DNA of 64,000 nt from Magnetococcales bacterium (GTDB lineage: Bacteria; Pseudomonadota; Magnetococcia; Magnetococcales; Magnetaquicoccaceae): positions 38,934-102,933 of the forward strand of contig PDZU01000005.1 of assembly GCA_002753095.1 (NCBI GenBank). The letters run 5' to 3'. Made by a program: the position numbers and the translations under genes. Positions 2,791 through 64,000 of this stretch are shown one piece after another. Within the stretch, counting starts at the first letter, position 1, and each line of letters begins with the position of its first letter. Under the pieces are notes generated by a model. The model did not search any database, was not told the origin of the DNA, and saw nothing but the letters and a program-made list of their open reading frames with translations.

Positions 2791-4590
2791 ATGCGTTATT
2801 CCCGTTTGTTGCAACAGGCCACAGTCCGGGTTTTGACCGTTTTACTGGCCGTTGTCGCGGTCGTCGCCCTCTTTGCCTTCACTGTGCCACCCCTGTTCAG
2901 CAATGCAGAGCTTCTCTGGATCGCCTCCTCTGCCCTGCTGATACTCGCACTGCTGTTCTGGGTCACGCTGGGGCGATGGCTGATCCGGTTGACCCGTCAC
3001 CTGACCCTGTTGCAAAATCTGACACACGACTTTATCGGCCATCAGAGGCTCTCCCCCGACAGCATCCAGCCACTGGAGACCCTGATCGCCACGCGCCACG
3101 ATGAGATTGGCACTCTGGCCGGTACCCTGCGCAAGTTGACGCAAACCGTGATTGCCAACACAAAAGATCTGCAACAACACACCAAACAACTGGAAGAGAA
3201 CGAAGCCCGCCTGCGCGCCATGACCCAGTCCCTGCGCGACGCCCTGTTGGTGTTCGATGCCGAGGGTTCCATTCTGTTCTGCAGCCATGTCTGCGCCAGC
3301 ATGTTCGATTGCCAGGAACGGGATCTGCTGGAGCGCTCGATCACCCATCTGTTCTCCCCCAACTGGCTGGATCCAGAATGGCAAAAAAAATGGATCCTGC
3401 CGCAGCACGCCAACGCCCTGCCCCACACCCATGAGCCCATGCGGGGGCTGGCCGTGCGCATGGATGGCCATGAATTTCCCATTGAGTTGACCATCTCGCA
3501 ATGGCAACGCCAGGGCGAAACCTTCTGCACCGCCATTATCCGCGACATTACCAACCTGAAAATTCTTGAAGAGCGCGATCTGCGCGCCTATGTCAACCGT
3601 ATCGCCATCAGTGCCCTGCTGGAGATCGGTATCGAACCCCTGCCCCTGCAGCGCAAACTGGAAGTGGCCCTGGAGATTATTTTGACCGTGCCCTGGTTGG
3701 CCATGCAGTACAAGGGGTCCATTTTTCTGGTCACCGAGGATGAGCACCTGGAGATGGTGGCACAAAAAAATCTCCATAATGCCCTTTTGCATGCATGTCA
3801 GCATATCCCCTTTGGCTATTGCTTGTGCGGCAAAGCGGCGCAGGCCAAAAAAATGGTCTTCGCCAATGCCCTGGACGACCGTCATGATGTCACCTTCGAT
3901 GGCATCCACGAACATGGTCACTACTGTCTGCCCATCCTGCTGCAGGGCAGGCTGCTCGGCGTGCTCAACCTCTACGTCGATCATCTGCACCCCTATGATC
4001 CAGAAGAAGAAGCCTTTTTGACCACCATCACCACCACCCTGGCCGGGGTAATTGATCGTGGTCTGGCCGATGACCGCATCCGGCATATGGCCACCCATGA
4101 CGCCCTCACCGGCCTGCCCAACCGTCTGCTCTTTCACGAACTGTTGACCCAGGAGGTGAAAAGAGCCTCCCGCACACAGCAACCTCTGGCGGTCGGCTTT
4201 CTGGATCTGGACCATTTCAAAGCGGTCAATGACACCCTGGGACATGATATTGGCGATCTGCTTTTGCAGGAGGTCGGCGCACGCACACGGCAACAACTGC
4301 GCAACTCGGACACCCTGGCCCGCATGGGGGGGGATGAGTTTGCCCTGATTCTGCCCGCCATCGGCGACAAACAACATGCCATCAACGTCTGCAGTAAAAT
4401 TGTCCAGACACTCAGCGAACCCTTTATTCTCAACGAAAATCGTTGTCAAATCGGTGCCAGCATCGGCTTGAGCCTTTTTCCAGAACATGGCGACTCGGTT
4501 GAACTGCTGCTGCAAAATGCCGATCAGGCCATGTATGTGGTCAAAAAAGGCGGTCGCAACGGGGTGACCATCTATCAGGTCCAATCATAA
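2791..4590 (+). CDS. Membrane-anchored PAS-GAF-GGDEF diguanylate cyclase
   Basis: Predicted to make the second messenger c-di-GMP from two GTP. About 599 residues. Two hydrophobic segments lie near residues 9-32 and 38-60, followed by a linker with heptad-like spacing, a PAS-like domain (about 145-255, starting ALLVFDAEGSILF), a GAF-like domain (about 275-425) and a GGDEF domain (about 435-599). The active-site motif GGDEF is intact at residues 513-517, and the product-inhibition I-site RxxD (RNSD, 504-507) lies five residues upstream, so an active, feedback-inhibited cyclase is expected. No EAL domain follows. A ribosome site (AAGGA) precedes ATG 2791. The input signal is unknown. It sits where hisF often follows hisA, but shows no functional tie to histidine. 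Confidence 0.9.
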   Translation: MRYSRLLQQATVRVLTVLLAVVAVVALFAFTVPPLFSNAELLWIASSALLILALLFWVTLGRWLIRLTRHLTLLQNLTHDFIGHQRLSPDSIQPLETLIATRHDEIGTLAGTLRKLTQTVIANTKDLQQHTKQLEENEARLRAMTQSLRDALLVFDAEGSILFCSHVCASMFDCQERDLLERSITHLFSPNWLDPEWQKKWILPQHANALPHTHEPMRGLAVRMDGHEFPIELTISQWQRQGETFCTAIIRDITNLKILEERDLRAYVNRIAISALLEIGIEPLPLQRKLEVALEIILTVPWLAMQYKGSIFLVTEDEHLEMVAQKNLHNALLHACQHIPFGYCLCGKAAQAKKMVFANALDDRHDVTFDGIHEHGHYCLPILLQGRLLGVLNLYVDHLHPYDPEEEAFLTTITTTLAGVIDRGLADDRIRHMATHDALTGLPNRLLFHELLTQEVKRASRTQQPLAVGFLDLDHFKAVNDTLGHDIGDLLLQEVGARTRQQLRNSDTLARMGGDEFALILPAIGDKQHAINVCSKIVQTLSEPFILNENRCQIGASIGLSLFPEHGDSVELLLQNADQAMYVVKKGGRNGVTIYQVQS

Positions 4591-4606
4591 TCACCCCGTT
4601 TTTTTT
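4558..4606 (+). terminator. Rho-independent terminator overlapping the end of the cyclase gene
   Basis: AACGGGGTGA at 4558-4567 is a perfect inverted repeat of TCACCCCGTT at 4591-4600, followed directly by a T run to 4606. The 5' arm lies inside the last codons of the diguanylate cyclase, so the coding sequence and the terminator share bases. The loop is about 23 bases. Confidence 0.75.
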
Positions 4607-4607
4607 C

Positions 4608-5708
4608 GTGGACAGCATAACAGGACGCACCTTGACCTCCCCTTTTGCCGCCAATCGCACAACGGCATGGCGTTTGTGCCATTTTGATTATCTCCTGCCA
4701 ACCGAACGCATCGCGCAACGCCCCGCCCCGGTCCGCGACCGCTCCCGACTGCTGGTCAGTCTGCCCGGCAAACGCCACGATGCTGTTTTTCGCCAACTGC
4801 CAGACTGGTTGCAACCCGGTGACCTGTTGGTGATGAATGATACCCGGGTCATCCCGGCCCGCCTGCTGGGCCACAAACCCTCTGGCGGTCGCATCGAAAT
4901 CTTGCTGCTGCAGCCACTGGCCAGCGCCGGTGAATGGGAGGCCATGGCCACCGGCAGCAAACGGATCCACCCCGGCCTGCAGATCGACATTGCCCCCGGT
5001 CTGCGGGTCACCTTTCTGGAACGCAGCAGCAACGGTTTCCGGGTGTTGCTGCACAGCCAGGAGGAGGCCCTGGAAAAAGCCCTGCAACGGCACGGACAAC
5101 TGCCCCTGCCGCCCTATATCACCGCCTCCGATCCACAACAGGATCCAGAACGGTACCAGACCATCTACGCCCGCCATCCCGGCGCCATCGCCGCCCCCAC
5201 TGCGGGCCTGCATTTTACCCCTTCGCTGTTGGCCCGTCTGAAAATCCTGGGTATCCAGAGTACCACCGTCACCCTGCATGTGGGCCCCGGCACCTTTCAA
5301 CCCGTGCGCGAAGAGGCGTTGCACCGCCATGTCATGCACCGGGAACGGGCCATCCTCTCGCCGCACAGCGCCCGTTTGATCAACCAGACCCACGCCCGCC
5401 AGGGCCGGGTCATCGCCGTCGGTACCACGTCGCTGCGGGTCTTGGAGAGCGCCGCCCTGCCCAGCGGTCGGGTGCGCCCCTGGCGGGGCGAAACCGGACT
5501 CTTTATTCTGCCGGGCTACCGTTTCCGCGTTGTCGATGGTCTGATCACCAACTTTCATCTGCCCCGCTCCACCCTGTTGATGCTGGTTGCCGCCTTGATC
5601 GGCAAGCGCCGCATGGATCGGGATTATGCCCACGCCATCAATCGGGGCTATCGCTTCTACTCCTACGGCGATGCCATGCTGCTCTGGCCAGGAAAACACC
5701 GCTCATGA
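4608..5708 (+). CDS. queA: tRNA preQ1(34) S-adenosylmethionine ribosyltransferase-isomerase
   Basis: The product transfers and isomerises the ribosyl moiety of SAM onto preQ1 in tRNA anticodons, giving epoxyqueuosine. The protein carries FDYLLPTERIAQ, NDTRVIPARLLG, GHKPSGGRIEILLL, AAPTAGLHFT, TLHVGPGTFQPV and NFHLPRSTLLMLV, all strong QueA signatures. The start is uncertain. GTG 4608 gives 366 residues but begins in the terminator; in-frame TTG codons at 4632 and 4674 give a length closer to the family, since homologues begin just before FDYLLP. Its stop overlaps the tgt start as ATGA, pairing two queuosine genes. Confidence 0.93.
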   Translation: MDSITGRTLTSPFAANRTTAWRLCHFDYLLPTERIAQRPAPVRDRSRLLVSLPGKRHDAVFRQLPDWLQPGDLLVMNDTRVIPARLLGHKPSGGRIEILLLQPLASAGEWEAMATGSKRIHPGLQIDIAPGLRVTFLERSSNGFRVLLHSQEEALEKALQRHGQLPLPPYITASDPQQDPERYQTIYARHPGAIAAPTAGLHFTPSLLARLKILGIQSTTVTLHVGPGTFQPVREEALHRHVMHRERAILSPHSARLINQTHARQGRVIAVGTTSLRVLESAALPSGRVRPWRGETGLFILPGYRFRVVDGLITNFHLPRSTLLMLVAALIGKRRMDRDYAHAINRGYRFYSYGDAMLLWPGKHRS

Positions 5709-7352: not shown

Positions 7353-8933
7353 ATGCGACAAGTCCCTTTATGGAAACCCGCGTTAATTCTCTTTACGGTG
7401 CTGCTCTCCCTGCTCTACGTTTTCCCCAGCGTCAACCACGGCGTTCCCGCGTGGTGGCCCTCCTGGTTGCCACATCAGGTGATCGCCCAGGGGCTGGATC
7501 TGCAGGGGGGGCTGCATCTGCTGCTCAACGTGGAGTCCGATAAAGCCGTCGAACAGACCGCCGAAAATCTGGTCGATGAGGTGCGTGGCATTCTACGCAA
7601 GGAGCAACTGCGCTATCAAAGTGTGGAACGGGAGGGCATCGACACGGTCAGCATTGTCTTGACCGAGAGCGGGGATTCTCCCAAGTACCGTCAAGTGCTG
7701 GAAAAAGAGTTGCCGACCACCCAGTTTGGCGAAGATGCCGGCAGCAAAAAGTTGCGTCTGACCATCAAACCGCTGGAGCAGAAAGAGATTCGCCGTTTTG
7801 CCCTGGAACAGTCCATTCAGACCATCCGTTCCCGCATTGACCAGTTTGGCGTCACCGAACCGACCATCCAAAAGCAGGGTGAGGACCGTATTCTGGTGCA
7901 ACTGCCCGGCTTGAACGATCCCACCCGTGCCAAGGCGTTGATCGGTCGCACCGCCCGCCTGGAGTTCAAGATGGTGGATGAAAAGGGCGATCTCAATGCT
8001 GCCCTGGCCGGTCGTGTCCCCCCGGGTGACGTGATTCTGTACGGCAACAAGGAGAGCGGACAAAAAGGTCGGCAAGCCTATCTGCTGAAAAAGCGGACGG
8101 TGCTTTCTGGTGATCTGCTGACCGACGCCCGCGTCAATTTCAGCCAGTACAGTGAGGCCTATGTCTCCATCACTTTTAATCGCCAGGGCGAGCGCAAGTT
8201 TGCCCAATTGACCGGGGAGCATGTCAACGAGCGGATGGCCATCGTGCTGGACAATGTGGTCTATTCGGCACCGGTAATCCGGGAAAAGATCGAGGGTGGC
8301 CGGGCGCAAATCAGCGGCAGTTTCAGCACGGAAGAGGCGCACGATCTGGCCATCATCCTGCGCGCCGGGGCGCTGCCGGCTCCAGTCAAGATTGTCGAAG
8401 AGCGTACTGTCGGCCCCACCCTGGGGCAGGATTCCATCGACCAGGGTTTGGCCTCCATCCTGATTGGCGGCGCGTTGGTACTCTTTTTCATGGGGGTCTA
8501 CTACAAGGGGTTTGGCTGGCTGGCCAACATGGCCGTGTTGCTCAACGTATTGATGTTGATGGCTGCTCTGGCCATGATGCAGGCCACCTTGACCATGCCC
8601 GGTATCGCCGGGGCTGTGCTGCTGATGGGCATGTCGGTGGATGCCAACGTGCTGATTTTTGAGCGCATCCGTGAAGAGTTGCGTCTGGGTAAAACCCCGT
8701 TGGCCGCCATTGAACACGGCTACGCCCGGGCCTTTGCCACCATTCTGGACTCCCATATCACCACCCTGATCACCGGATTGGTGCTCTATCAGTTTGGAAC
8801 CGGTCCGGTCAGAGGTTTTGCCGTTACCCTCTCCATCGGCCTGATCATCTCCATGTATACCGCCGTTTTTGTTACCCGTGTGGTCCTGGACATGATTCTG
8901 CAGGGCCGACATGTCAGAACATTGAGCGTTTAA
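7353..8933 (+). CDS. secD: Protein translocase subunit SecD
   Basis: With SecF this uses the proton gradient to pull exported proteins through SecYEG on the periplasmic side. 526 residues. There is one N-terminal membrane segment, then the conserved GLDLQGGLHLLL motif, a large periplasmic P1 domain (about 60-345) and five C-terminal membrane segments starting near SIDQGLASILIGG. The RND-type signature around GMSVDANVLIFERIREEL is intact. The reading frame continues to within 70 bases of secF. Confidence 0.96.
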   Translation: MRQVPLWKPALILFTVLLSLLYVFPSVNHGVPAWWPSWLPHQVIAQGLDLQGGLHLLLNVESDKAVEQTAENLVDEVRGILRKEQLRYQSVEREGIDTVSIVLTESGDSPKYRQVLEKELPTTQFGEDAGSKKLRLTIKPLEQKEIRRFALEQSIQTIRSRIDQFGVTEPTIQKQGEDRILVQLPGLNDPTRAKALIGRTARLEFKMVDEKGDLNAALAGRVPPGDVILYGNKESGQKGRQAYLLKKRTVLSGDLLTDARVNFSQYSEAYVSITFNRQGERKFAQLTGEHVNERMAIVLDNVVYSAPVIREKIEGGRAQISGSFSTEEAHDLAIILRAGALPAPVKIVEERTVGPTLGQDSIDQGLASILIGGALVLFFMGVYYKGFGWLANMAVLLNVLMLMAALAMMQATLTMPGIAGAVLLMGMSVDANVLIFERIREELRLGKTPLAAIEHGYARAFATILDSHITTLITGLVLYQFGTGPVRGFAVTLSIGLIISMYTAVFVTRVVLDMILQGRHVRTLSV

Positions 8934-10425: not shown

Positions 10426-10791
10426 ATGGCAAACATTCTGGTCGTGGATGACGACTCTTCCATCCGCGCTTTGCTGCGGGAAATTCTGGAAGATGAGGGG
10501 CACCGCATTGAAGAGGCTGCCGATGGCAAGCAAGGGGTGCAAAGTTTCCGCTCCGCCACCTTCGATTTGGTCATCACCGATGTACTGATGCCGGAAAAGG
10601 ATGGGGTGGAGTTGATCATGGAGTTGCAGGAAGCCTTTCCAGACATCAAGATTATTGCCATGTCCGGTGGTGGGCGGGGGCTGGATGCCCAATTCAGCCT
10701 GCGCATCGCCCGTGATTTCGGTGCCGTCCAGCAAATGGAAAAACCCTTTACCCGCAAACGGGTTTTGGAAACCGTGCGCCGGGTGTTGTAA
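10426..10791 (+). CDS. Single-domain response regulator (CheY-like receiver)
   Basis: A stand-alone receiver domain of 121 residues. The acidic pocket is in ILVVDDDSS (about residues 4-12), the phospho-acceptor is Asp52 in LVITDVLMPEKDG, and the conserved lysine is Lys106 in QMEKPFTRK. There is no output domain. The start ATG 10426 matches the family; the frame is open seven codons further. No kinase is adjacent, so its partner and role cannot be read from context. The ilvB start follows four bases after its stop. Confidence 0.9.
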   Translation: MANILVVDDDSSIRALLREILEDEGHRIEEAADGKQGVQSFRSATFDLVITDVLMPEKDGVELIMELQEAFPDIKIIAMSGGGRGLDAQFSLRIARDFGAVQQMEKPFTRKRVLETVRRVL

Positions 10792-10794
10792 TCA

Positions 10795-12534
10795 ATGGAT
10801 CAACTCAGCCATGTTGGGAGTTGCAAGGTGCAATTGACAGGTGCAGAAATTGTCGTAAAGTGCCTGCTGGAACAGGGAGTTCAGACCGTTTTCGGCTATC
10901 CGGGCGGTGCGGCGCTTTACATCTATGATGAAATTTACAAGGCGGGGGACAAGATAACCCATATCCTCTCCCGCCATGAACAGGGCGCGCTGCATGCGGC
11001 GGATGGTTATGCGCGCGCTACTGGCCGACCGGGTGTGGCCATCGTCACCTCTGGTCCTGGGGCCACCAATGCGGTTACCGGTTTGGCCACCGCCTACATG
11101 GACTCGATTCCCATGGTCTGCATCTCCGCCCAGGTGTCGGTGCCGTTGATCGGCAATGATGCCTTTCAGGAGGTGGATACCGTTGGCATCACCCGTTCCT
11201 GCACCAAGCACAACTATCTGGTGCGGGATGTCCGTGATTTGGCCCGTGTGCTGCGCGAGGCGTTCTTTATTGCCAACAGTGGGCGACCTGGGCCGGTGTT
11301 GGTGGACATTCCCAAGGATGTTTCCAACACCAAGACCGACTATGCCCCGCCCAGCGGGGAGGTAACCATTCGCTCTTACCGGCCCACGACCAAGGGGCAT
11401 CAACGGCAGGTACGGCGGGCGGTGGAGATGTTGCAGGTAGCCGAGCGGCCTTTGCTTTACACGGGTGGTGGTGTGATTCTGGCCAACGCATGGGAGGAGT
11501 TGCGCTGGCTGACCAACGCGCTCAATCTGCCCATTACCCACACCTTGATGGGGTTGGGCTCTTTTCCGGCCAGTGATGTACGCTTTTTGGGCATGTTGGG
11601 CATGCATGGCACCTATGAGGCCAACATGGCGGTGTCGAACTGCGACCTGTTGGTGGCCATTGGTGCCCGTTTTGATGATCGGGTGACCGGGAAAATTTCC
11701 TCTTTTGCCCCGCACGCCAAGATTATCCACATTGATGTGGATCCCACCTCCATTTCCAAGAATGTGCGCGTGGATCTGCCCATTGTGGGGGATGTGCGTT
11801 TGGTGCTCAACCAGATCAACGCGCTGGTACGGGAAGAGAAGGCGGAGCAAAAGCAGCCTGACCGGCAGGCGTGGTGGCAGGAGATTGCCGAGTGGCGCAA
11901 GAAGGATTGTCTGCGTTTTACCCAGGGGCCGGAGGTGATTGAGGCGCAGTATGTGATTCAGTCGCTCTGCACCTTGACCGAGGGGCAGGCCATCATCGCG
12001 ACCGATGTGGGTCAGCATCAGATGTGGGCGGCGCAATTTTACGGCTTCCAGGAGGCGCGGCACTGGTTGACTTCTGGCGGATTGGGCACCATGGGGTATG
12101 GTCTGCCTGCCGCCATGGGGGCACAGGTGGCCTTTCCCAAGCGTCAGGTGGTGGTGATCAGTGGGGATGGCTCCATCCAGATGAACATCCAGGAGTTGGG
12201 CACCTGTCTGCAGTACAATCTGCCCATCAAGATCATTATTCTCAACAATGGTTATCTGGGCATGGTGCGGCAGTGGCAGGAGCTTTTCTATGAGCGGCGT
12301 TACGCCGAGACGGATATTGCCAACGCGCCCGACTTTGTCAAGGTGGCCGAAGCCTATGGGGCCTTGGGATTGCGGACGGATCGACCTGAGGAGGTGATGC
12401 CGCTGCTGCGGCAGGGGTTGGCCCATCCTGGTACGGTGGTGATGGATTTTCGGGTCCGCCGCGAGTCCAACGTTTATCCCATGGTCCCTGCTGGTGGTGC
12501 CCTGCAAGATATGATCCTGGGCGAGCTTCTATAG
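10795..12534 (+). CDS. ilvB: Acetolactate synthase, large catalytic subunit
   Basis: The ThDP- and FAD-dependent enzyme that condenses pyruvate with pyruvate or 2-ketobutyrate, the first common step to valine, leucine and isoleucine. Around 570-579 residues. The activating glutamate lies in HEQGALHAADGYAR, and the ThDP motif runs from GDGSIQMNIQELGT to LNNGYLGMVRQW. It is followed directly by its regulatory subunit. Two starts are possible: ATG 10795, used here, or GTG 10828, which follows GGGAG at a normal distance and matches homologues beginning near LTGAEIVV. Confidence 0.95.
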   Translation: MDQLSHVGSCKVQLTGAEIVVKCLLEQGVQTVFGYPGGAALYIYDEIYKAGDKITHILSRHEQGALHAADGYARATGRPGVAIVTSGPGATNAVTGLATAYMDSIPMVCISAQVSVPLIGNDAFQEVDTVGITRSCTKHNYLVRDVRDLARVLREAFFIANSGRPGPVLVDIPKDVSNTKTDYAPPSGEVTIRSYRPTTKGHQRQVRRAVEMLQVAERPLLYTGGGVILANAWEELRWLTNALNLPITHTLMGLGSFPASDVRFLGMLGMHGTYEANMAVSNCDLLVAIGARFDDRVTGKISSFAPHAKIIHIDVDPTSISKNVRVDLPIVGDVRLVLNQINALVREEKAEQKQPDRQAWWQEIAEWRKKDCLRFTQGPEVIEAQYVIQSLCTLTEGQAIIATDVGQHQMWAAQFYGFQEARHWLTSGGLGTMGYGLPAAMGAQVAFPKRQVVVISGDGSIQMNIQELGTCLQYNLPIKIIILNNGYLGMVRQWQELFYERRYAETDIANAPDFVKVAEAYGALGLRTDRPEEVMPLLRQGLAHPGTVVMDFRVRRESNVYPMVPAGGALQDMILGELL

Positions 12535-15636: not shown

Positions 15637-15701
15637 AAATTAATCCGGGTCCAGGGAGCTGGCTCCCTGGCGGGTCCAGGGCGGAGCCTTGGGAATTTGG
15701 C

Positions 15702-15779
15702 TTTTATCTGTTGCTTTTATCTGTTGCTTTTATCTGTTGCTTTTATCTGTTGCTTTTATCTGTTGCTTTTATCTGTTGC
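15702..15779 (+). repeat. Six perfect tandem copies of a 13-base unit
   Basis: The unit TTTTATCTGTTGC is repeated six times without a mismatch, each copy touching the next. The equivalent place in the 24836-25305 copy holds only an irregular T-rich stretch, so this tract has expanded recently and is likely to vary in copy number between strains (inference). Confidence 0.95.
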
Positions 15780-15854
15780 CTTTGCCTTTCTGGCGCGCTT
15801 TTCACGATAAGCCGATGCGCTTTTTGCATCGGCTTAAGCGCCTAATTGACGCAA

Positions 15855-24835: not shown

Positions 24836-25305
24836 GCGGGTCCAGGGGGGTCACCCCCCTGGCGGGTCCAGGGCGGAGCCCTGGGAATTTATCTTTTGAT
24901 TTTAATCTTTTCGCTTTTAATCTTTTGCCTTTGGCGCGCTTTTCACGACAAGCCGATGCGTTTTTTGCATCGGCGCAGCGCGCCTCATTGACGCAAGGTG
25001 TTTGGATTGGCGCGCTTTTCTGCGCCAATCCAAACACCCTCCCAATGGGTTTTGTGCGAGGTCACGATAACAGGGCGATGCACGGATTACCGCGTGGTTA
25101 AAAGTCGGGCGTCCGCCCTCCCAGAGCGTGCCCCTTCGGGGCACAAATTTGGGCGCGCTGCGCAGATTTGCTGCGCAAATCTGCTTCGTTAAAAGCGCGC
25201 CATTACAAGCAGGGCTTCGCCCTGCACCCAGCAGGGCTTCGCCCTGCACCCAGCAAGGCTTCGCCCTGCACCCAGCAGGGGCGGTGACCGCCCCTGCACC
25301 CCGCA
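24836..25305 (+). repeat. Compound palindromic intergenic repeat, copy 3 (full)
   Basis: Same module order as copy 1. A CCAGGGGGG/CCCCCCTGG palindrome and a CCAGGG/CCCTGG pair are followed by an irregular T-rich tract where copy 1 has the 13-base units. Next come the hairpin at 24952-24974, the 17-bp hairpin at 24997-25038, and the core from about 25099. The GCAGGGC/GCCCTGC module is present as three tandem 22-base units (25209-25230, 25231-25252, 25253-25274; the third has one change). It separates the two dcw blocks, murG and rsmH. Confidence 0.9.
24997..25038. repeat. Perfect 17-bp palindrome of repeat copy 3
   Basis: GGTGTTTGGATTGGCGC (24997-25013) pairs exactly with 25022-25038 across an 8-base loop. 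Compared with 15855-15896, the differing bases are all matched by changes in the opposite arm. Confidence 0.92.
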
Positions 25306-58884: not shown

Positions 58885-59427
58885 TCACGGTAGAACGTGC
58901 GTCGGCAAACCATCCAGACTGAACTGGTTCTTCTCCGCCCAATAGCGCCGAATCCCCGCTTCCCCCTTTTTTTCCGCCCAGCGGACCATCTCAGGCCGCT
59001 CGCCGACAAAATCCATGATCGGAACAGCAAAACCGCAGGAGGTATGCACCGAAGCAATCTCAGCCACCACCACCTGCCGCTTGCCCGGCAGATCGGGAAA
59101 ATGCCCTACCCACTCCGGCCACTCCGCATCCCGCGCATGATAAACACGCCCCACACCATACAATCGTACAATCCAGGGCTGGCTGGAAAAACTGCAAAAC
59201 ATGAAGGTAATGCGCGGATCATCGTACAGATGTGCGGCTGTCTCATTGGCACTGCCGGTCACATTCAAAAAAGCCACACAGCGGGAATGCAACACCCGAA
59301 ACGAATCCATCCCCTTGGGCGACAGATTGATGCGCCCCACCTGCGGGGCCGTGGCCACAAAATAGAGTTTTTGCTGCTCGATAAACGCCTGCACTTTGGG
59401 CGTGATCTCCTCGTGCAATTCACCCAT
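58885..59427 (-). CDS. Pyridoxamine 5'-phosphate oxidase-like FMN-binding protein
   Basis: 180 residues from ATG 59427, after GGGGGAG. The N-terminal ELHEEITPKVQAFIEQQKLYFVATA and the NLSPKGMDSFRVL segment, then LYDDPRITFMFCSF and RLYGVGRVYHA, have the split-barrel pyridoxamine oxidase-like pattern. A true PNPOx role is not proven; members of this family bind FMN, F420 or heme. The start overlaps the stop of the TPR gene by 8 bases, so they are coupled. Confidence 0.8.
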   Translation of the reverse strand: MGELHEEITPKVQAFIEQQKLYFVATAPQVGRINLSPKGMDSFRVLHSRCVAFLNVTGSANETAAHLYDDPRITFMFCSFSSQPWIVRLYGVGRVYHARDAEWPEWVGHFPDLPGKRQVVVAEIASVHTSCGFAVPIMDFVGERPEMVRWAEKKGEAGIRRYWAEKNQFSLDGLPTHVLP

Positions 59428-61600
59428 GCTGGTTCTCCCCCGTCTGAGCAACGGCACCAACCTCAAGGGCCAGTTGTGCGGCCACCTCCTGAACAACCGC
59501 CGTCCAATCATCCACCTGCCGCTGCCGAAACAGACGCAACACCCCCGGATACCAGGGTGAATCCTGCCGCTCCAGTAGCCAACGCCAATCACTGTCCCAC
59601 TGAGACAACATCACCCAACAGGGCTTGCCCAATGCGCCCGCTACGTGGGCCACCGCCGAATCAACCGTGACCAACAGATCCAACTGCGCCACAAGCGCCG
59701 CCGTATCGGCAAAATCACGGATCATCCCCCCCAACGGCAACAAAGGCTGCTGCGCCGGGGCACGACTGGCCTCCTCCTCCCCCTCACCCTTTTGCAAACT
59801 GAGGAAAGTTACACCAGAAACCTGCCACAAGGGGGCCAATACGGTCAAACTTGGCAAAGAACGGTTGCTGTCCCTGGGGTTGGCCCGCCCGCGCCAAAAA
59901 AGCCCCACCCGCATGCCACGACGCGGCAACAATGGCCGCCACCAGTTGATCCGCTCCGCACTGGCCTGCAAATAAGGAAGTTGGTTGACCATGTTCGGCA
60001 GCGTGGTCGCAAACAGGCCCGGCAGGGATAACAGGTTGACCCAATAATCATGCCGAGGATACACCGCAACCTGCTCATAGGCCAACACCTGATCCACCGC
60101 CGCCAAGGTCTCAAACAACGGCTTGAGCAACACAGAACAGAGCACCGTCACCCAAACCGCACCACGCGTCTTCAATAGAGACACATAGCGGCAAAACTGG
60201 ACCTGATCGCCAAAACCCTGCTCCGGGGCCACCAATATTGCCTTGCCCTGCAACGACTCCCCCTGCCAGCGCACAAAAGGAGGATCGGCCAGTTGCCGCC
60301 ACTCCGCCTGATTCAACTGCAGACGCACCTCATAACAGGGCCACCCCTCGGCAAAACGCCCCTGCAACAGCAACAACAACCCCAAATTCCATTCCGCCTG
60401 CCGATACTCCGGTTGCAAGAGCATGGCCCGCCGATAACAGGCTTCCGCCTCGGCAAACCGGCGCAACTCTTTCAACAAATTGCCCAGATTGTTCAACACT
60501 TCCGCATAATCAGGCCGCAACAGCAGCGCTTGCCGATAGACCGCTTCCGCCTCCTCGGCGCGCTTCTGTTCAAACAACAAGGATCCCAGATTGCAATAGG
60601 CCATCGCATAGCCCGCATCCTGCCCGATCACCTGACGATAGGACGCCTCCGCCTCCGCCCAACGCCCCATCTCTTGCAATAAAACACCAAGATTGTTCCT
60701 TATCTCCAACCGCCCCCCGGAAAGCAGCAAAGCCTGCCGATAACTACTCTCCGCTTCGGCAAATCTCTTCAGCGCCTGCAACAGCGTCGCCAAATTGTTG
60801 TGGTAGGTCGCCTCATCACCCTGCAAGCGCAACGCCGCACGATAGCTCTCTTCTGCCTCGGCAAAGCGGTGCATCTCCTTGAGCACGGAACCCAAATGGT
60901 TGTGCGCCTCGGCGAAATCAGGCACCCTCTGCAACAATTGACGCAACAGCGACTCTGCCTCGGCAAAACGCCCCTGCTGTTGCAACAACTTGGCAAAGGC
61001 AAACAACACACCCTGCTGCGGTCCACGCTGCAACGCCTGCCGATAACAGGCTTCCGCCTCGGCAAAACGTTTCTGCTCCGTCAACAATTTTGCAAGATTG
61101 TTATGGATCTCAACAGGCACCCCCTCCTGACCCTGCTGCAGCGCCTGCCGGTATAAATCCTCCGCCTCTGCCAGCTTTTTTTGCTCCTGCAACAGATTGC
61201 CCAGATTGTTCAGGGCATCCACATACCCTGGCCGCACCTGTAACGCCATGCGGTAACACCCCTCCGCCTCAACAAAACGCTGACTGCGCAGATGCAGATT
61301 GCCCAAATTATTATGGACCTCCGCATAATCCGGACGCAGACGAAGCGCCTCCTGCCAATGCTGCAGCGCCTGTTCGCTGTGCCCCAGACGGATATGACAC
61401 ACCGCCGCCAAATTATATAACGCAGCATCCTCCTGCCCGGACCGACAAGCCGCCTCCGCCGCCTGCAAAGTCTCCAACAACCTGCCCTCGGCATACCACT
61501 GGCGCAAACGCGGCAACAACGCCTCCTGAACAGACTGCTCTGCCGTTTCCTGCCCCGGAGCCGCTCCCTTTGCCGCTCGTACACTCTTTTTGCGGGCCAT
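59420..61600 (-). CDS. TPR protein with C-terminal glycosyltransferase-like domain
   Basis: 726 residues from ATG 61600, behind GGAGGAGGGGAG. About eleven tandem TPR-like 34-residue units (about 30-420), with a repeated motif RFAEAExxYRQAL. The C-terminal domain (about 440-726) has GFGDQVQFCRYV, LFWRGRANPRDSNRSLP, and VDSAVAHVAGALGKPCWVMLS, the pattern of bacterial TPR-linked glycosyltransferase family 9/41-like domains. A role in protein or surface glycosylation is possible. The repeated DNA makes misassembly or copy change possible. The stop overlaps the oxidase gene. Confidence 0.82.
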   Translation of the reverse strand: MARKKSVRAAKGAAPGQETAEQSVQEALLPRLRQWYAEGRLLETLQAAEAACRSGQEDAALYNLAAVCHIRLGHSEQALQHWQEALRLRPDYAEVHNNLGNLHLRSQRFVEAEGCYRMALQVRPGYVDALNNLGNLLQEQKKLAEAEDLYRQALQQGQEGVPVEIHNNLAKLLTEQKRFAEAEACYRQALQRGPQQGVLFAFAKLLQQQGRFAEAESLLRQLLQRVPDFAEAHNHLGSVLKEMHRFAEAEESYRAALRLQGDEATYHNNLATLLQALKRFAEAESSYRQALLLSGGRLEIRNNLGVLLQEMGRWAEAEASYRQVIGQDAGYAMAYCNLGSLLFEQKRAEEAEAVYRQALLLRPDYAEVLNNLGNLLKELRRFAEAEACYRRAMLLQPEYRQAEWNLGLLLLLQGRFAEGWPCYEVRLQLNQAEWRQLADPPFVRWQGESLQGKAILVAPEQGFGDQVQFCRYVSLLKTRGAVWVTVLCSVLLKPLFETLAAVDQVLAYEQVAVYPRHDYWVNLLSLPGLFATTLPNMVNQLPYLQASAERINWWRPLLPRRGMRVGLFWRGRANPRDSNRSLPSLTVLAPLWQVSGVTFLSLQKGEGEEEASRAPAQQPLLPLGGMIRDFADTAALVAQLDLLVTVDSAVAHVAGALGKPCWVMLSQWDSDWRWLLERQDSPWYPGVLRLFRQRQVDDWTAVVQEVAAQLALEVGAVAQTGENQHG

Positions 61601-61643
61601 CTCCCCTCCTCCAGCAAACCCGTGCTCCAACGCCTACCCCAAA

Positions 61644-61671
61644 CAAAAAAACCCTCTCCCGAAGGAGAGGG
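61644..61671 (-). terminator. Rho-independent terminator of the repeat-protein gene
   Basis: On the minus strand an 8-bp CCCTCTCC/GGAGAGGG stem (61652-61659 with 61664-61671) with a TTCG tetraloop is followed by seven T bases (61651 to 61645). This is a textbook terminator for the gene ending at 61739. Confidence 0.85.
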
Positions 61672-61690
61672 AATACAACGAAACTCAACT

Positions 61691-61724
61691 GAAAACCGGC
61701 TCTCTCTGCAGCGAGAGAGCCGGT
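61691..61724 (-). terminator. Second, upstream terminator-like hairpin of the same gene
   Basis: A perfect 12-bp ACCGGCTCTCTC stem (61695-61706 with 61713-61724), six-base loop, then four T bases on the minus strand. Together with 61644-61671 it makes a tandem terminator, 15 bases after the stop codon. Confidence 0.65.
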
Positions 61725-61738
61725 ACTGCTCTTGATGA

Positions 61739-64000
61739 CTAGCTGCTCCACAAAGAGTACAGAGCAGAGGTGCTTTCGAGGCTACCCAAAGCAGCAATCT
61801 GTGTGGAGGTAATACCCGCCGACGTCGTCCATTCCGCCTTGGTACTGTATGCCGTCAGCCACGTATCATCCATGGTCCCCAACTGCGTGGCAGTCAACGC
61901 CGCAATCTGCGTCTTGGTCATGTTCTGCACGGCAGTCATGGTGACACCCAGAACCTGCGTACTGGTCAAAGCCGCCACAGCCGTCTTGGTCAAGGCACGG
62001 ACCTGATCGGTGGAGAGGCTGTAGATCTGCGTCGAACCCAGGCCACCCAACTGCGTGGTGGTCAACAGAGCCACCTGCGTCGTCGTCAAACCATCCAACT
62101 GGGTATCGGCAAAACCGGCCAGTTGCGACGAGGTCAAACCACCCAACTGCGAGTTCTTCAGAGCAGCCACCAGCGTGGAACTCATGCCATCCAACTGCGT
62201 ATCGGCCAAAGTAGCCAGTTGGACAGAGGTCAAGCCCAACAACTGGGTGGTGGTCAACACCGCCATGTGCGTCGAAGAGAGACCATTCAACTGGGTGTCC
62301 TTCAAGTTCTTCAACTGCGCCGAAGTCAAACCAGCCAACTGGGTATCGGCAAAGGTGGCCAACTGCGTCGAGGTCAACGCATTCCACTGGGTGACGGCAA
62401 AGGCTCCCAACTGCCCCGAAGTCAGACCGTTGAACTGCGTATCAGCCCAGGTCGCCAACTGTGCCGAAGTCAAGCCCCGCAACTGGGTGGTCGTGAAGCT
62501 GTAGATCTGCGACGACGACAACCCGTCCAACTGCGTGCCCGCCAAGGTCTTCAACTGAGCGGAGGTCAAGCCCGGCAGCGGACCATCCACCATGCTGGCC
62601 AAAGCCAGCGAACTCAGGCCATCCAACTGGGTACCTGCCAAACTGCTCAACTGGGCAGAGGTCAAGCTGGCAAACTGCGTGACCGCCAACTGGCTTATCT
62701 GCGCCGAGCCCAAGCCATTCAACTGCACGGTGGTCAAACCGGCCAACTGCGTCGAGGTCAGACCGTCCAACTGGGTATCGGCCATGCTGAACAACTGCGC
62801 CGAGGTCAAACCAAGGAGCTGCGTGTTGGCCAAGCCATTCAACGACAAGGAATACAAACCATTCAATTGAACCGTACTCAACGCCTTCAGATGGATAGAG
62901 GACAGACCATCCAACTGCGTATCCGCCAGCGCAGACAACTGGTCAGAAACCATGCCAGCCAACTGCGTTGCCGCCAACCCCGTCAACAACGCCGAGGTCA
63001 AGCCATCCAACTGCGTATCCTCCAGATAAGCCAACTGCGTCGAGAGCAAACCATCCATCTGCGTCGCCACCAGGGTGGAGAGAGCCACCGAACTCATGCC
63101 AATCCACTGCGTACCAGCCAGAGACTTCAGTTGCAGCGAAGTCATCCCGGCAATTTGCGTATCGGCCAAGCCAGACAGTTGATCATCCGTCAGGCCATTC
63201 AACTGCACCGTAGTCAGACCACCCAACTGCGACGAACTCAGACCATTCAACTGCGTATCGGCCAGACCGGACAACAGGGCAGAGGTCAGACCAGCCAATT
63301 GTGTTCCCACCAAACTGGCCAACTGCGCCGAGGTCATGCCATTCAACTGTGTATCGGCCAAAGTGGACAGTTGGCTCGACTTCAAGCCATCCCACTGCGT
63401 CGTCGCCAAGCCCGCCAACTGCGTCGCAGAGATACCGTTGAGTTGAACAGAACTCAACCCGGCCAACTGCGTGGAACTCAACCCATCCAACTGGGTATCG
63501 GCCAAGGTAGCAAGAACCGCAGAACCGATACCACCCAACTGGGTCACCACCAAACCGGTCAACTGCAGGGATGTCAAGCCATCCAACTGCGTGTCCGCCA
63601 GGGTAGACAACACCGCCGAAGTCAGGCCATTCAACTGCGTATCCGCCAAACCGGTCAACTGCAACGAACCCAGGCCATTCAGTTGCGTGCCCGCCAGTGA
63701 GGCCAACGATTTGCTGTACAGACCATTGAGTTGGGTATCCGCCAAAGCACCCAGGCGCAGCGAACCCAAACCATCCAACTGGGTCGTGGCAAAAACGGCC
63801 AACTGCGTCGAGGTCAAACCATCCAACTGCGTATCGGCCAACGTGCTCAGTTTTGCCGAAGTCAGTCCACGCAACTGCGTGCCCGCCAATGCCGTCAACT
63901 GCAACGAAGTCAGGCCATTCAACTGCGTATCCACCAAAGATACCAACCGGGCCGAAGTCAGGCCATTCAACTGCGTATCGGCCAGACCAGTCAACTGGAC
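61739..64000 (-). CDS. Very long 16-residue-repeat protein, C-terminal part (runs off the right edge)
   Basis: The 5' end lies beyond base 64000; the frame is open to the edge. 753 residues are visible. About 40 near-perfect 16-residue units with consensus LADTQLNGLTSAQLAS, fixed at T, Q, L, G, L and S positions, while the rest varies. The last 80-100 residues drift away (TKTQIAALTATQ, then AEWTTSAGITSTQIAALGSLE), a typical end cap. No signal or anchor is in the visible part. I infer a long repeat solenoid, probably secreted or surface-exposed. No family can be named securely. Two hairpin terminators follow. Confidence 0.85.
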   Translation of the reverse strand, partial: VQLTGLADTQLNGLTSARLVSLVDTQLNGLTSLQLTALAGTQLRGLTSAKLSTLADTQLDGLTSTQLAVFATTQLDGLGSLRLGALADTQLNGLYSKSLASLAGTQLNGLGSLQLTGLADTQLNGLTSAVLSTLADTQLDGLTSLQLTGLVVTQLGGIGSAVLATLADTQLDGLSSTQLAGLSSVQLNGISATQLAGLATTQWDGLKSSQLSTLADTQLNGMTSAQLASLVGTQLAGLTSALLSGLADTQLNGLSSSQLGGLTTVQLNGLTDDQLSGLADTQIAGMTSLQLKSLAGTQWIGMSSVALSTLVATQMDGLLSTQLAYLEDTQLDGLTSALLTGLAATQLAGMVSDQLSALADTQLDGLSSIHLKALSTVQLNGLYSLSLNGLANTQLLGLTSAQLFSMADTQLDGLTSTQLAGLTTVQLNGLGSAQISQLAVTQFASLTSAQLSSLAGTQLDGLSSLALASMVDGPLPGLTSAQLKTLAGTQLDGLSSSQIYSFTTTQLRGLTSAQLATWADTQFNGLTSGQLGAFAVTQWNALTSTQLATFADTQLAGLTSAQLKNLKDTQLNGLSSTHMAVLTTTQLLGLTSVQLATLADTQLDGMSSTLVAALKNSQLGGLTSSQLAGFADTQLDGLTTTQVALLTTTQLGGLGSTQIYSLSTDQVRALTKTAVAALTSTQVLGVTMTAVQNMTKTQIAALTATQLGTMDDTWLTAYSTKAEWTTSAGITSTQIAALGSLESTSALYSLWSS

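What the first reader, a model, noticed from the sequence alone, without database searches (positions are those of the whole stretch)
61739..64000. Giant protein of 16-residue TQLxGL repeats
The visible 753 residues hold about 40 units of one 16-residue pattern with rigid T-Q-L-x-G-L-x-S spacing, and the gene continues beyond the window. The 48-base DNA period is nearly perfect in places, which suggests active unit gain and loss. Such length and regularity point to a solenoid filament or adhesin of unknown type.
Basis: partly seen in the sequence, partly recalled or inferred. Interest (0 to 1): 0.75.

Follow-up and report, generated by a model that had tools for sequence, protein, structure and literature searches.

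The report
Giant secreted octad-repeat fibre, fixed length
The end of this window encodes the tail of a giant bacterial protein made of 8-residue repeats of a known but little-studied family; a related species carries a 6,415-residue copy with the same repeats in the same order, and some relatives place such genes beside export and sugar-transfer genes, so the protein is likely exported and likely sugar-decorated as a long surface fibre whose length would be kept by selection.

Summary
In detail: an open frame of 753 codons with 72 of 75 glutamines in one phase of an 8-residue register. The contig ends at base 64000. The repeat is known: Pfam PF20080, ALTTAQ. The genome is Magnetococcales, same genus as Ca. 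Magnetaquicoccus.

The syntenic ortholog in strain UR-1 is one frame of 6,415 aa, almost all octads. It aligns with the WMHbinv6 ortholog over 6,409 residues with gaps of only 3 and 1 residues, about 70% identical; the window piece aligns with UR-1 over 724 residues ungapped. So 'nearly perfect DNA period, active gain and loss' is wrong here: adjacent 48-mers average 56% identity, best 73%.

An alignment-based AlphaFold2 model gives one short helix per octad (pLDDT 83); a single-sequence model of another part gave strands (pLDDT 73). In the sister genus ALTTAQ giants follow HlyB-HlyD genes, beside a GT41 glycosyltransferase gene, in 4 of 5 genomes opened; in 3 genomes of the own genus no HlyD gene adjoins one. 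Best reading: a type I-secreted, probably glycosylated helical-solenoid fibre of near-fixed length.

The parts
61739..64000 (-). C-terminal 753 codons (with stop) of the ALTTAQ giant; open at the contig end
   Evidence: frame; PF20080, E 2.2e-38, 130 bits against cut-off 26.4, 17 stretches; register; contig end
61742..61891 (-). C-terminal 50 residues, mostly outside the octad register, resembling the tails of orthologs and of three ALTTAQ paralog tails; candidate export signal (inferred)
   Evidence: identity 53 and 51% to orthologs, 25, 29 and 33% to paralog tails; 7 invariant columns
61695..61724 (-). 12-bp perfect inverted repeat just after the stop; hairpin, likely part of the transcript end
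   Evidence: (-25 kcal/mol, z -4.8)
61652..61671 (-). 8-bp hairpin followed by a run of T; intrinsic-terminator-like
   Evidence: -15.9 kcal/mol, z -2.7
59420..61630 (-). Downstream neighbour: TPR protein with a glycosyltransferase family 9-like end (736 aa by mechanical start); the same neighbour lies downstream of the UR-1 and WMHbinv6 orthologs
   Evidence: TPR; PF01075 25.3 bits against cut-off 22; 77 and 71% identity; order

Best explanation
This is the C-terminal 753 residues of a giant ALTTAQ-repeat protein that is likely exported by a type I (HlyB-HlyD-TolC) secretion system, likely glycosylated on its Ser/Thr-rich octads, and predicted to fold into a long solenoid of one short helix per eight residues, which would serve as a surface fibre or adhesin of near-fixed length. 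Shown: the repeat family; the strict 8-residue register; a 6,415-aa ortholog; unit order kept between species; glycosyltransferase neighbours of the orthologs; HlyB-HlyD genes next to family members in the sister genus. Inferred: export of this particular protein, its glycosylation, the helical fold along its whole length, attachment to the surface, and that selection keeps the length. Proposed working: the protein is made and modified in the cytoplasm by TPR-type glycosyltransferases, threaded out C-terminus first, and folds outside into a rod that holds the cell to particles, other cells or matrix at a set distance.
For: PF20080. Complete ortholog and kept unit order: 6,409 residues aligned with gaps of 3 and 1; collinear place beats every shift of 8-400 residues in 30 of 33 and 6 of 6 blocks of 160, and 8 of 9 blocks of 80 for the window piece; dN 0.21, dS 1.05; the aligner makes no spurious gaps when one partner is cut shorter, 4 of 4 trials. 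Export: GT41-TPR / HlyB / HlyD / ALTTAQ order in 4 of 5 sister-genus genomes opened (profiles); first 80 residues of the UR-1 ortholog 61, 62 and 55% identical to those of serralysin-type (M10) ALTTAQ paralogs, a class exported by type I systems (general knowledge); RTX, DUF4347 and peptidase C2 domains in other ALTTAQ proteins. Glycosylation: TPR-GT41 and rml genes upstream and a TPR-GT9-like gene downstream of the orthologs; 202 of 753 residues Ser or Thr. Fold; sequence relation to the solved chain 9zem 'HeliScrew4'.
Against: No HlyB or HlyD gene adjoins the window gene or its orthologs. In the three own-genus genomes searched (G000, G004, G005) none of the HlyD genes over cut-off lies beside an ALTTAQ gene; the only one on a shared contig is G004:C40, some 43 kb away. 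The sister-genus HlyB proteins score 581-596 bits, below TIGR01846's cut-off of 725.55. In the own genome the upstream flank is missing, and its GT41 gene on C141 has no rml genes beside it in the stretch read. A single-sequence AlphaFold2 run on 403 other residues gave strands. WMHbinv6 has an in-frame stop. The kept unit number may only reflect low slippage of diverged DNA repeats. No data on expression, location or sugars.
Confidence: 0.55

Rival explanations
1. The octads form a beta-solenoid with 16-residue coils rather than a helical solenoid; the protein would still likely be a secreted fibre.
For: Single-sequence AlphaFold2 of window:62792-64000 gave regular short strands, mean pLDDT 73 in the best of five models.
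Against: Only one of five models exceeded pLDDT 45 there; with an alignment, 330 residues that also contain the DTQLxGL octads are helical at pLDDT 83, three of five models at 79 or more; in that model the conserved Gly falls just after each helix, where glycine is common (general knowledge).
Confidence: 0.2
2. The unit number is unchanged merely because the DNA repeats have diverged too far to slip, so the kept length has no functional meaning.
For: In the orthologs 0 of 798 and 0 of 668 adjacent 48-mers reach 90% identity; the array whose register is lost, C495/C23, is the more homogeneous one (protein identity at lag 16 of 0.61 and 0.63 against 0.53-0.54).
Against: Purifying selection on the units (dN/dS about 0.2) and three giants with nearly no unit change between the same two genomes; neither excludes it.
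Confidence: 0.4
3. A cytoplasmic or magnetosome-associated scaffold rather than an exported protein.
For: No Sec-type signal is evident by eye at the UR-1 N-terminus, and no secretion genes adjoin the orthologs.
Against: Shared termini with serralysin-type paralogs and HlyB-HlyD neighbours in the sister genus.
Confidence: 0.12
4. A leucine-rich-repeat (LRR) protein.
For: phmmer matches to LRR chains of the PDB, best E 1.4e-10; weak PF23952 match below its cut-off.
Against: No 24-residue period: identity at lag 24 (0.33) is about that at lags 8 (0.32) and 40 (0.31) and below lags 16 (0.46) and 32 (0.52); helical model.
Confidence: 0.03

Closest known systems
Pfam PF20080 ALTTAQ repeat proteins
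   Same: Same repeat, over the curated cut-off; other members carry peptidase C2, RTX or DUF4347 domains
HeliScrew4 (PDB 9zem)
   Same: 8-residue L-(T/S)-x-x-Q-like period; E 4.6e-10 to the window's C-terminal 153 aa
   Different: 120-residue chain; no paper found, so what it was made for is unknown to me; it was not among the fold-search rows shown
Mesothelin superfamily
   Same: Best Foldseek matches of the model, E 2e-4; described as predicted superhelical ARM-type (PMC2628672, abstract and passages seen)
   Different: TM-score 0.30, rmsd 10.8 A; no evidence of common descent
RTX / LapA-type giant type I adhesins
   Same: Giant, repetitive, no evident Sec signal; HlyB-HlyD neighbours for sister-genus members
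   Different: No RTX or Ig-like domains in the window piece; repeat of another kind
HMW1 adhesin with HMW1C (GT41-related) glycosyltransferase
   Same: Large exported adhesin with a GT41-type enzyme as partner (PMC3983070, PMC3012730: listing and abstract starts seen)
   Different: HMW1 uses two-partner secretion and N-linked sugars; here HlyB-HlyD neighbours, and the sugar linkage is a guess

Membership tests
PF20080 ALTTAQ repeat | Whole-protein score above the curated cut-off (26.4 bits) | tested here: met
   130 bits, E 2.2e-38, 17 stretches
PF20080 ALTTAQ repeat | 8-residue register carried through the array | tested here: met
   72 of 75 Gln in one phase; 663 of 734 in the UR-1 ortholog, the same phase leading in every 200-residue stretch with Gln
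HeliScrew-like helical solenoid | One short helix per 8 residues | tested here: inconclusive
   Seen in the alignment-based model, contradicted by a single-sequence model of another part
Type I secretion substrate | HlyB/HlyD genes next to the gene | tested here: not met
   None beside the window gene or its UR-1 and WMHbinv6 orthologs; met for other ALTTAQ giants in 4 of 5 sister-genus genomes
Type I secretion substrate | Uncleaved C-terminal signal | tested here: inconclusive
   Tail conserved with paralogs, including a serralysin-type gene's likely C-terminus (C63); function not testable here
RTX protein | Nonapeptide Ca-binding repeats (PF00353) | tested here: not met
   Absent from the window piece at E up to 1; rest of this copy not available
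LRR protein | Repeat of about 24 residues | tested here: not met
   Autocorrelation peaks at 16 and 32, not 24
Mesothelin / ARM superfamily | Same superhelical fold | tested here: inconclusive
Serralysin-type (M10) ALTTAQ paralog | M10 catalytic domain | tested here: not met
   None in the window piece; UR-1 ortholog printed for its first 1,400 and last 400 residues shows only octads; present in the separate gene on C134

The most novel reading that the evidence does not exclude
The protein is a molecular ruler: a single 6,400-residue helical screw of nearly 800 octads, glycosylated by a dedicated TPR-GT41 enzyme and pushed out by a type I exporter, whose exact number of octads sets a fixed reach on the surface of magnetotactic cocci and is held by selection.
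Probability: 0.17. Interest if true: 0.8.

Novelty: new variant of a known kind. Interest (0 to 1): 0.52.

Why it matters
ALTTAQ repeats are catalogued in Pfam, but no paper of the held library names them. These genomes give three testable handles: a recurrent GT41 / HlyB-HlyD / ALTTAQ gene group, conserved termini that could be export tags, and giant arrays whose number and order of octads are kept between species while another array in the same two genomes has lost its register. If the helical model holds, this would be a very short-period helical solenoid carried to about 6,400 residues, and it would make length control in a repeat protein measurable.

Full report
What is there. The minus-strand frame 61739-64000 is open for 753 codons to the last base of the window. 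The window is G000:C20:38934-102933 and that contig has 102,933 bases, so the gene is cut by the contig end. The protein keeps an 8-residue register: 72 of 75 Gln are in one phase; identity is 0.32 at lag 8 and 0.46 at lag 16, against a mean of 0.12 (maximum 0.15) at lag 16 in 200 shuffles. Two kinds of octad alternate, roughly S-x-Q-L-x-x-L-A and D-T-Q-L-x-G-L-T (position table). The stop is followed by two terminator-like hairpins. The repeat is Pfam PF20080, ALTTAQ. Among solved chains, phmmer lists an LRR receptor first (E 1.4e-10) and 9zem 'HeliScrew4', which has the 8-residue period, second (5.6e-9; 4.6e-10 with the C-terminal 153 residues).

DNA level. The nearly perfect 48-base period is not there. 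Adjacent 48-mers average 56% identity, best 73%; at lag 48 the observed 0.565 is slightly above the 0.533 that the protein alone would give. No adjacent pair reaches 90% in the window piece (0 of 91) or in the UR-1 ortholog (0 of 798).

The whole gene, from relatives. In both, the repeat gene lies beside the ortholog of the window's downstream TPR gene (77% and 71%). UR-1 has one frame of 6,415 aa; WMHbinv6 has 1,035 and 5,375 aa separated by one in-frame TAG. Aligned as two pieces, they cover 6,409 residues with one 3-residue gap near the N-terminus and one 1-residue gap at the C-terminus, 72% and 69% identical. The window piece aligns with UR-1 over 724 residues without a gap, 71% identical, then one 1-residue gap in the tail; dN 0.21, dS 1.05. 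As a register control, blocks were compared at every shift of 8 to 400 residues: the collinear place won in 30 of 33 and 6 of 6 blocks of 160, and in 8 of 9 blocks of 80 for the window piece. Single 24-mers were ambiguous, 14 of 30, because units are alike. Cutting one partner short made the aligner invent no gaps, 4 of 4 trials.

Other arrays. Between the same two genomes a second giant (C101/C28) aligns over 3,193 residues ungapped, collinear best in 19 of 19 blocks; WMHbinv6's mechanical start lies 22 codons earlier. A third (C323/C40, both cut at contig ends) aligns over 5,333 residues with one 32-residue gap, collinear best in 26 of 26 blocks after the gap. A fourth (C495/C23, both cut) has no standing register: the C-terminal one is best in only 1 of 11 blocks. 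In the sister genus G009 and G010 have 2,942 aa each, ungapped at 83%, while G007's gene has 1,966 aa. So units are kept between near species in most arrays and change over longer times or in one array. The one with lost register is also the most homogeneous of these, so low slippage is a fair alternative to selection; short-read assembly may also have collapsed homogeneous arrays.

Distribution. PF20080 rings in 16 of 61 genomes searched: 7 of 7 in the genus, 9 of 11 in the sister genus, 0 of 43 others; of 14 control genomes one, Caulobacter vibrioides. The protein database gave 63 matches among the 7,995 candidates scored; most listed carry PF20080, some only LRR models, and partner domains include peptidase C2, RTX and DUF4347. 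In the own genome ALTTAQ frames sit at four contig ends: C20 (this one), C134 (serralysin-type N-terminal part), C63 (a C-terminus sharing a 162-bp, 96% stretch with C134) and C173 (an N-terminus).

Export. The first 80 residues of the UR-1 ortholog are 61, 62 and 55% identical to those of three serralysin-type paralogs, and the last 50 residues share 7 invariant columns with three paralog tails, at 25-33% identity. In the sister genus I opened five of the nine PF20080-positive genomes, those given. In four (G007, G008, G009, G010) the order TPR-GT41 / HlyB / HlyD / ALTTAQ giant is kept; G013:C78 lacks it. In G007, G008 and G010 the TPR-GT41 and some HlyD genes were recognised by tblastn with the G009 proteins (60-87% and 69-90%). 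HlyD passes TIGR01843 in all four at these places. HlyB is best matched by TIGR01846 at 581-596 bits, below its cut-off of 725.55. Against the reading: in G000, G004 and G005 no HlyD gene over cut-off adjoins an ALTTAQ gene. The own genome does have three HlyD genes over cut-off and a type I TolC gene on C134.

Sugar genes. Upstream of the UR-1 ortholog lie four rml-type genes and a 2,505-aa TPR-GT41 protein; rmlB, rmlA and the TPR-GT41 gene were found at the same place in WMHbinv6 (80, 92 and 79%). Downstream in both is the TPR protein with a GT9-like end. GT41 frames number two to four per genome by my grouping, yet one lies within about 5 kb of an ALTTAQ giant in each of the four relatives searched (G001:C92, G004:C29, G005:C1, G009:C4); in G000 none could be placed. 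G004 and G005 share one ancestral neighbourhood, so these are not independent. 202 of 753 residues are Ser or Thr. Glycosylation is an inference.

Verdict. A real and very regular giant of a known repeat family, most likely a type I-exported, probably glycosylated helical-solenoid fibre. 'Active gain and loss' is replaced, for this gene, by its opposite.

Noticed in passing
G004:C29:43065-43067 (L098:1066-1068): One in-frame TAG splits the WMHbinv6 ortholog into 1,035 and 5,375 codons while the octad register continues across it; sequencing error, recent break or read-through cannot be told apart.
   Followed up: partly
L051 (G000:C173) 28-714 minus, with flagellin-like frames at 3828-4667, 8033-8851 and 10517-11431: An ALTTAQ N-terminal piece at a contig start, near recQ and three flagellin-like genes (by eye); which C-terminus it belongs to is unknown.
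   Followed up: partly
L049:14442-20000 (G000:C134:52847-58405): Serralysin-type M10 peptidase with an RTX match followed by ALTTAQ octads, open at the contig end; orthologs in G004:C71 and G005:C212.
   Followed up: partly
window 15700-15783 and 25208-25280: Short tandem arrays: a 13-base unit 6.5 times (98% matches) and a 22-base unit 3.3 times (96%).
   Followed up: no
G001:C1:198990-216026 and G004:C40:82049-99076: Other ALTTAQ frames of 5,679 and 5,675 codons run off their contigs; they hold 20 and 21 of 706 adjacent 48-mers at 90% or more, so some arrays do look recently expanded.
   Followed up: no
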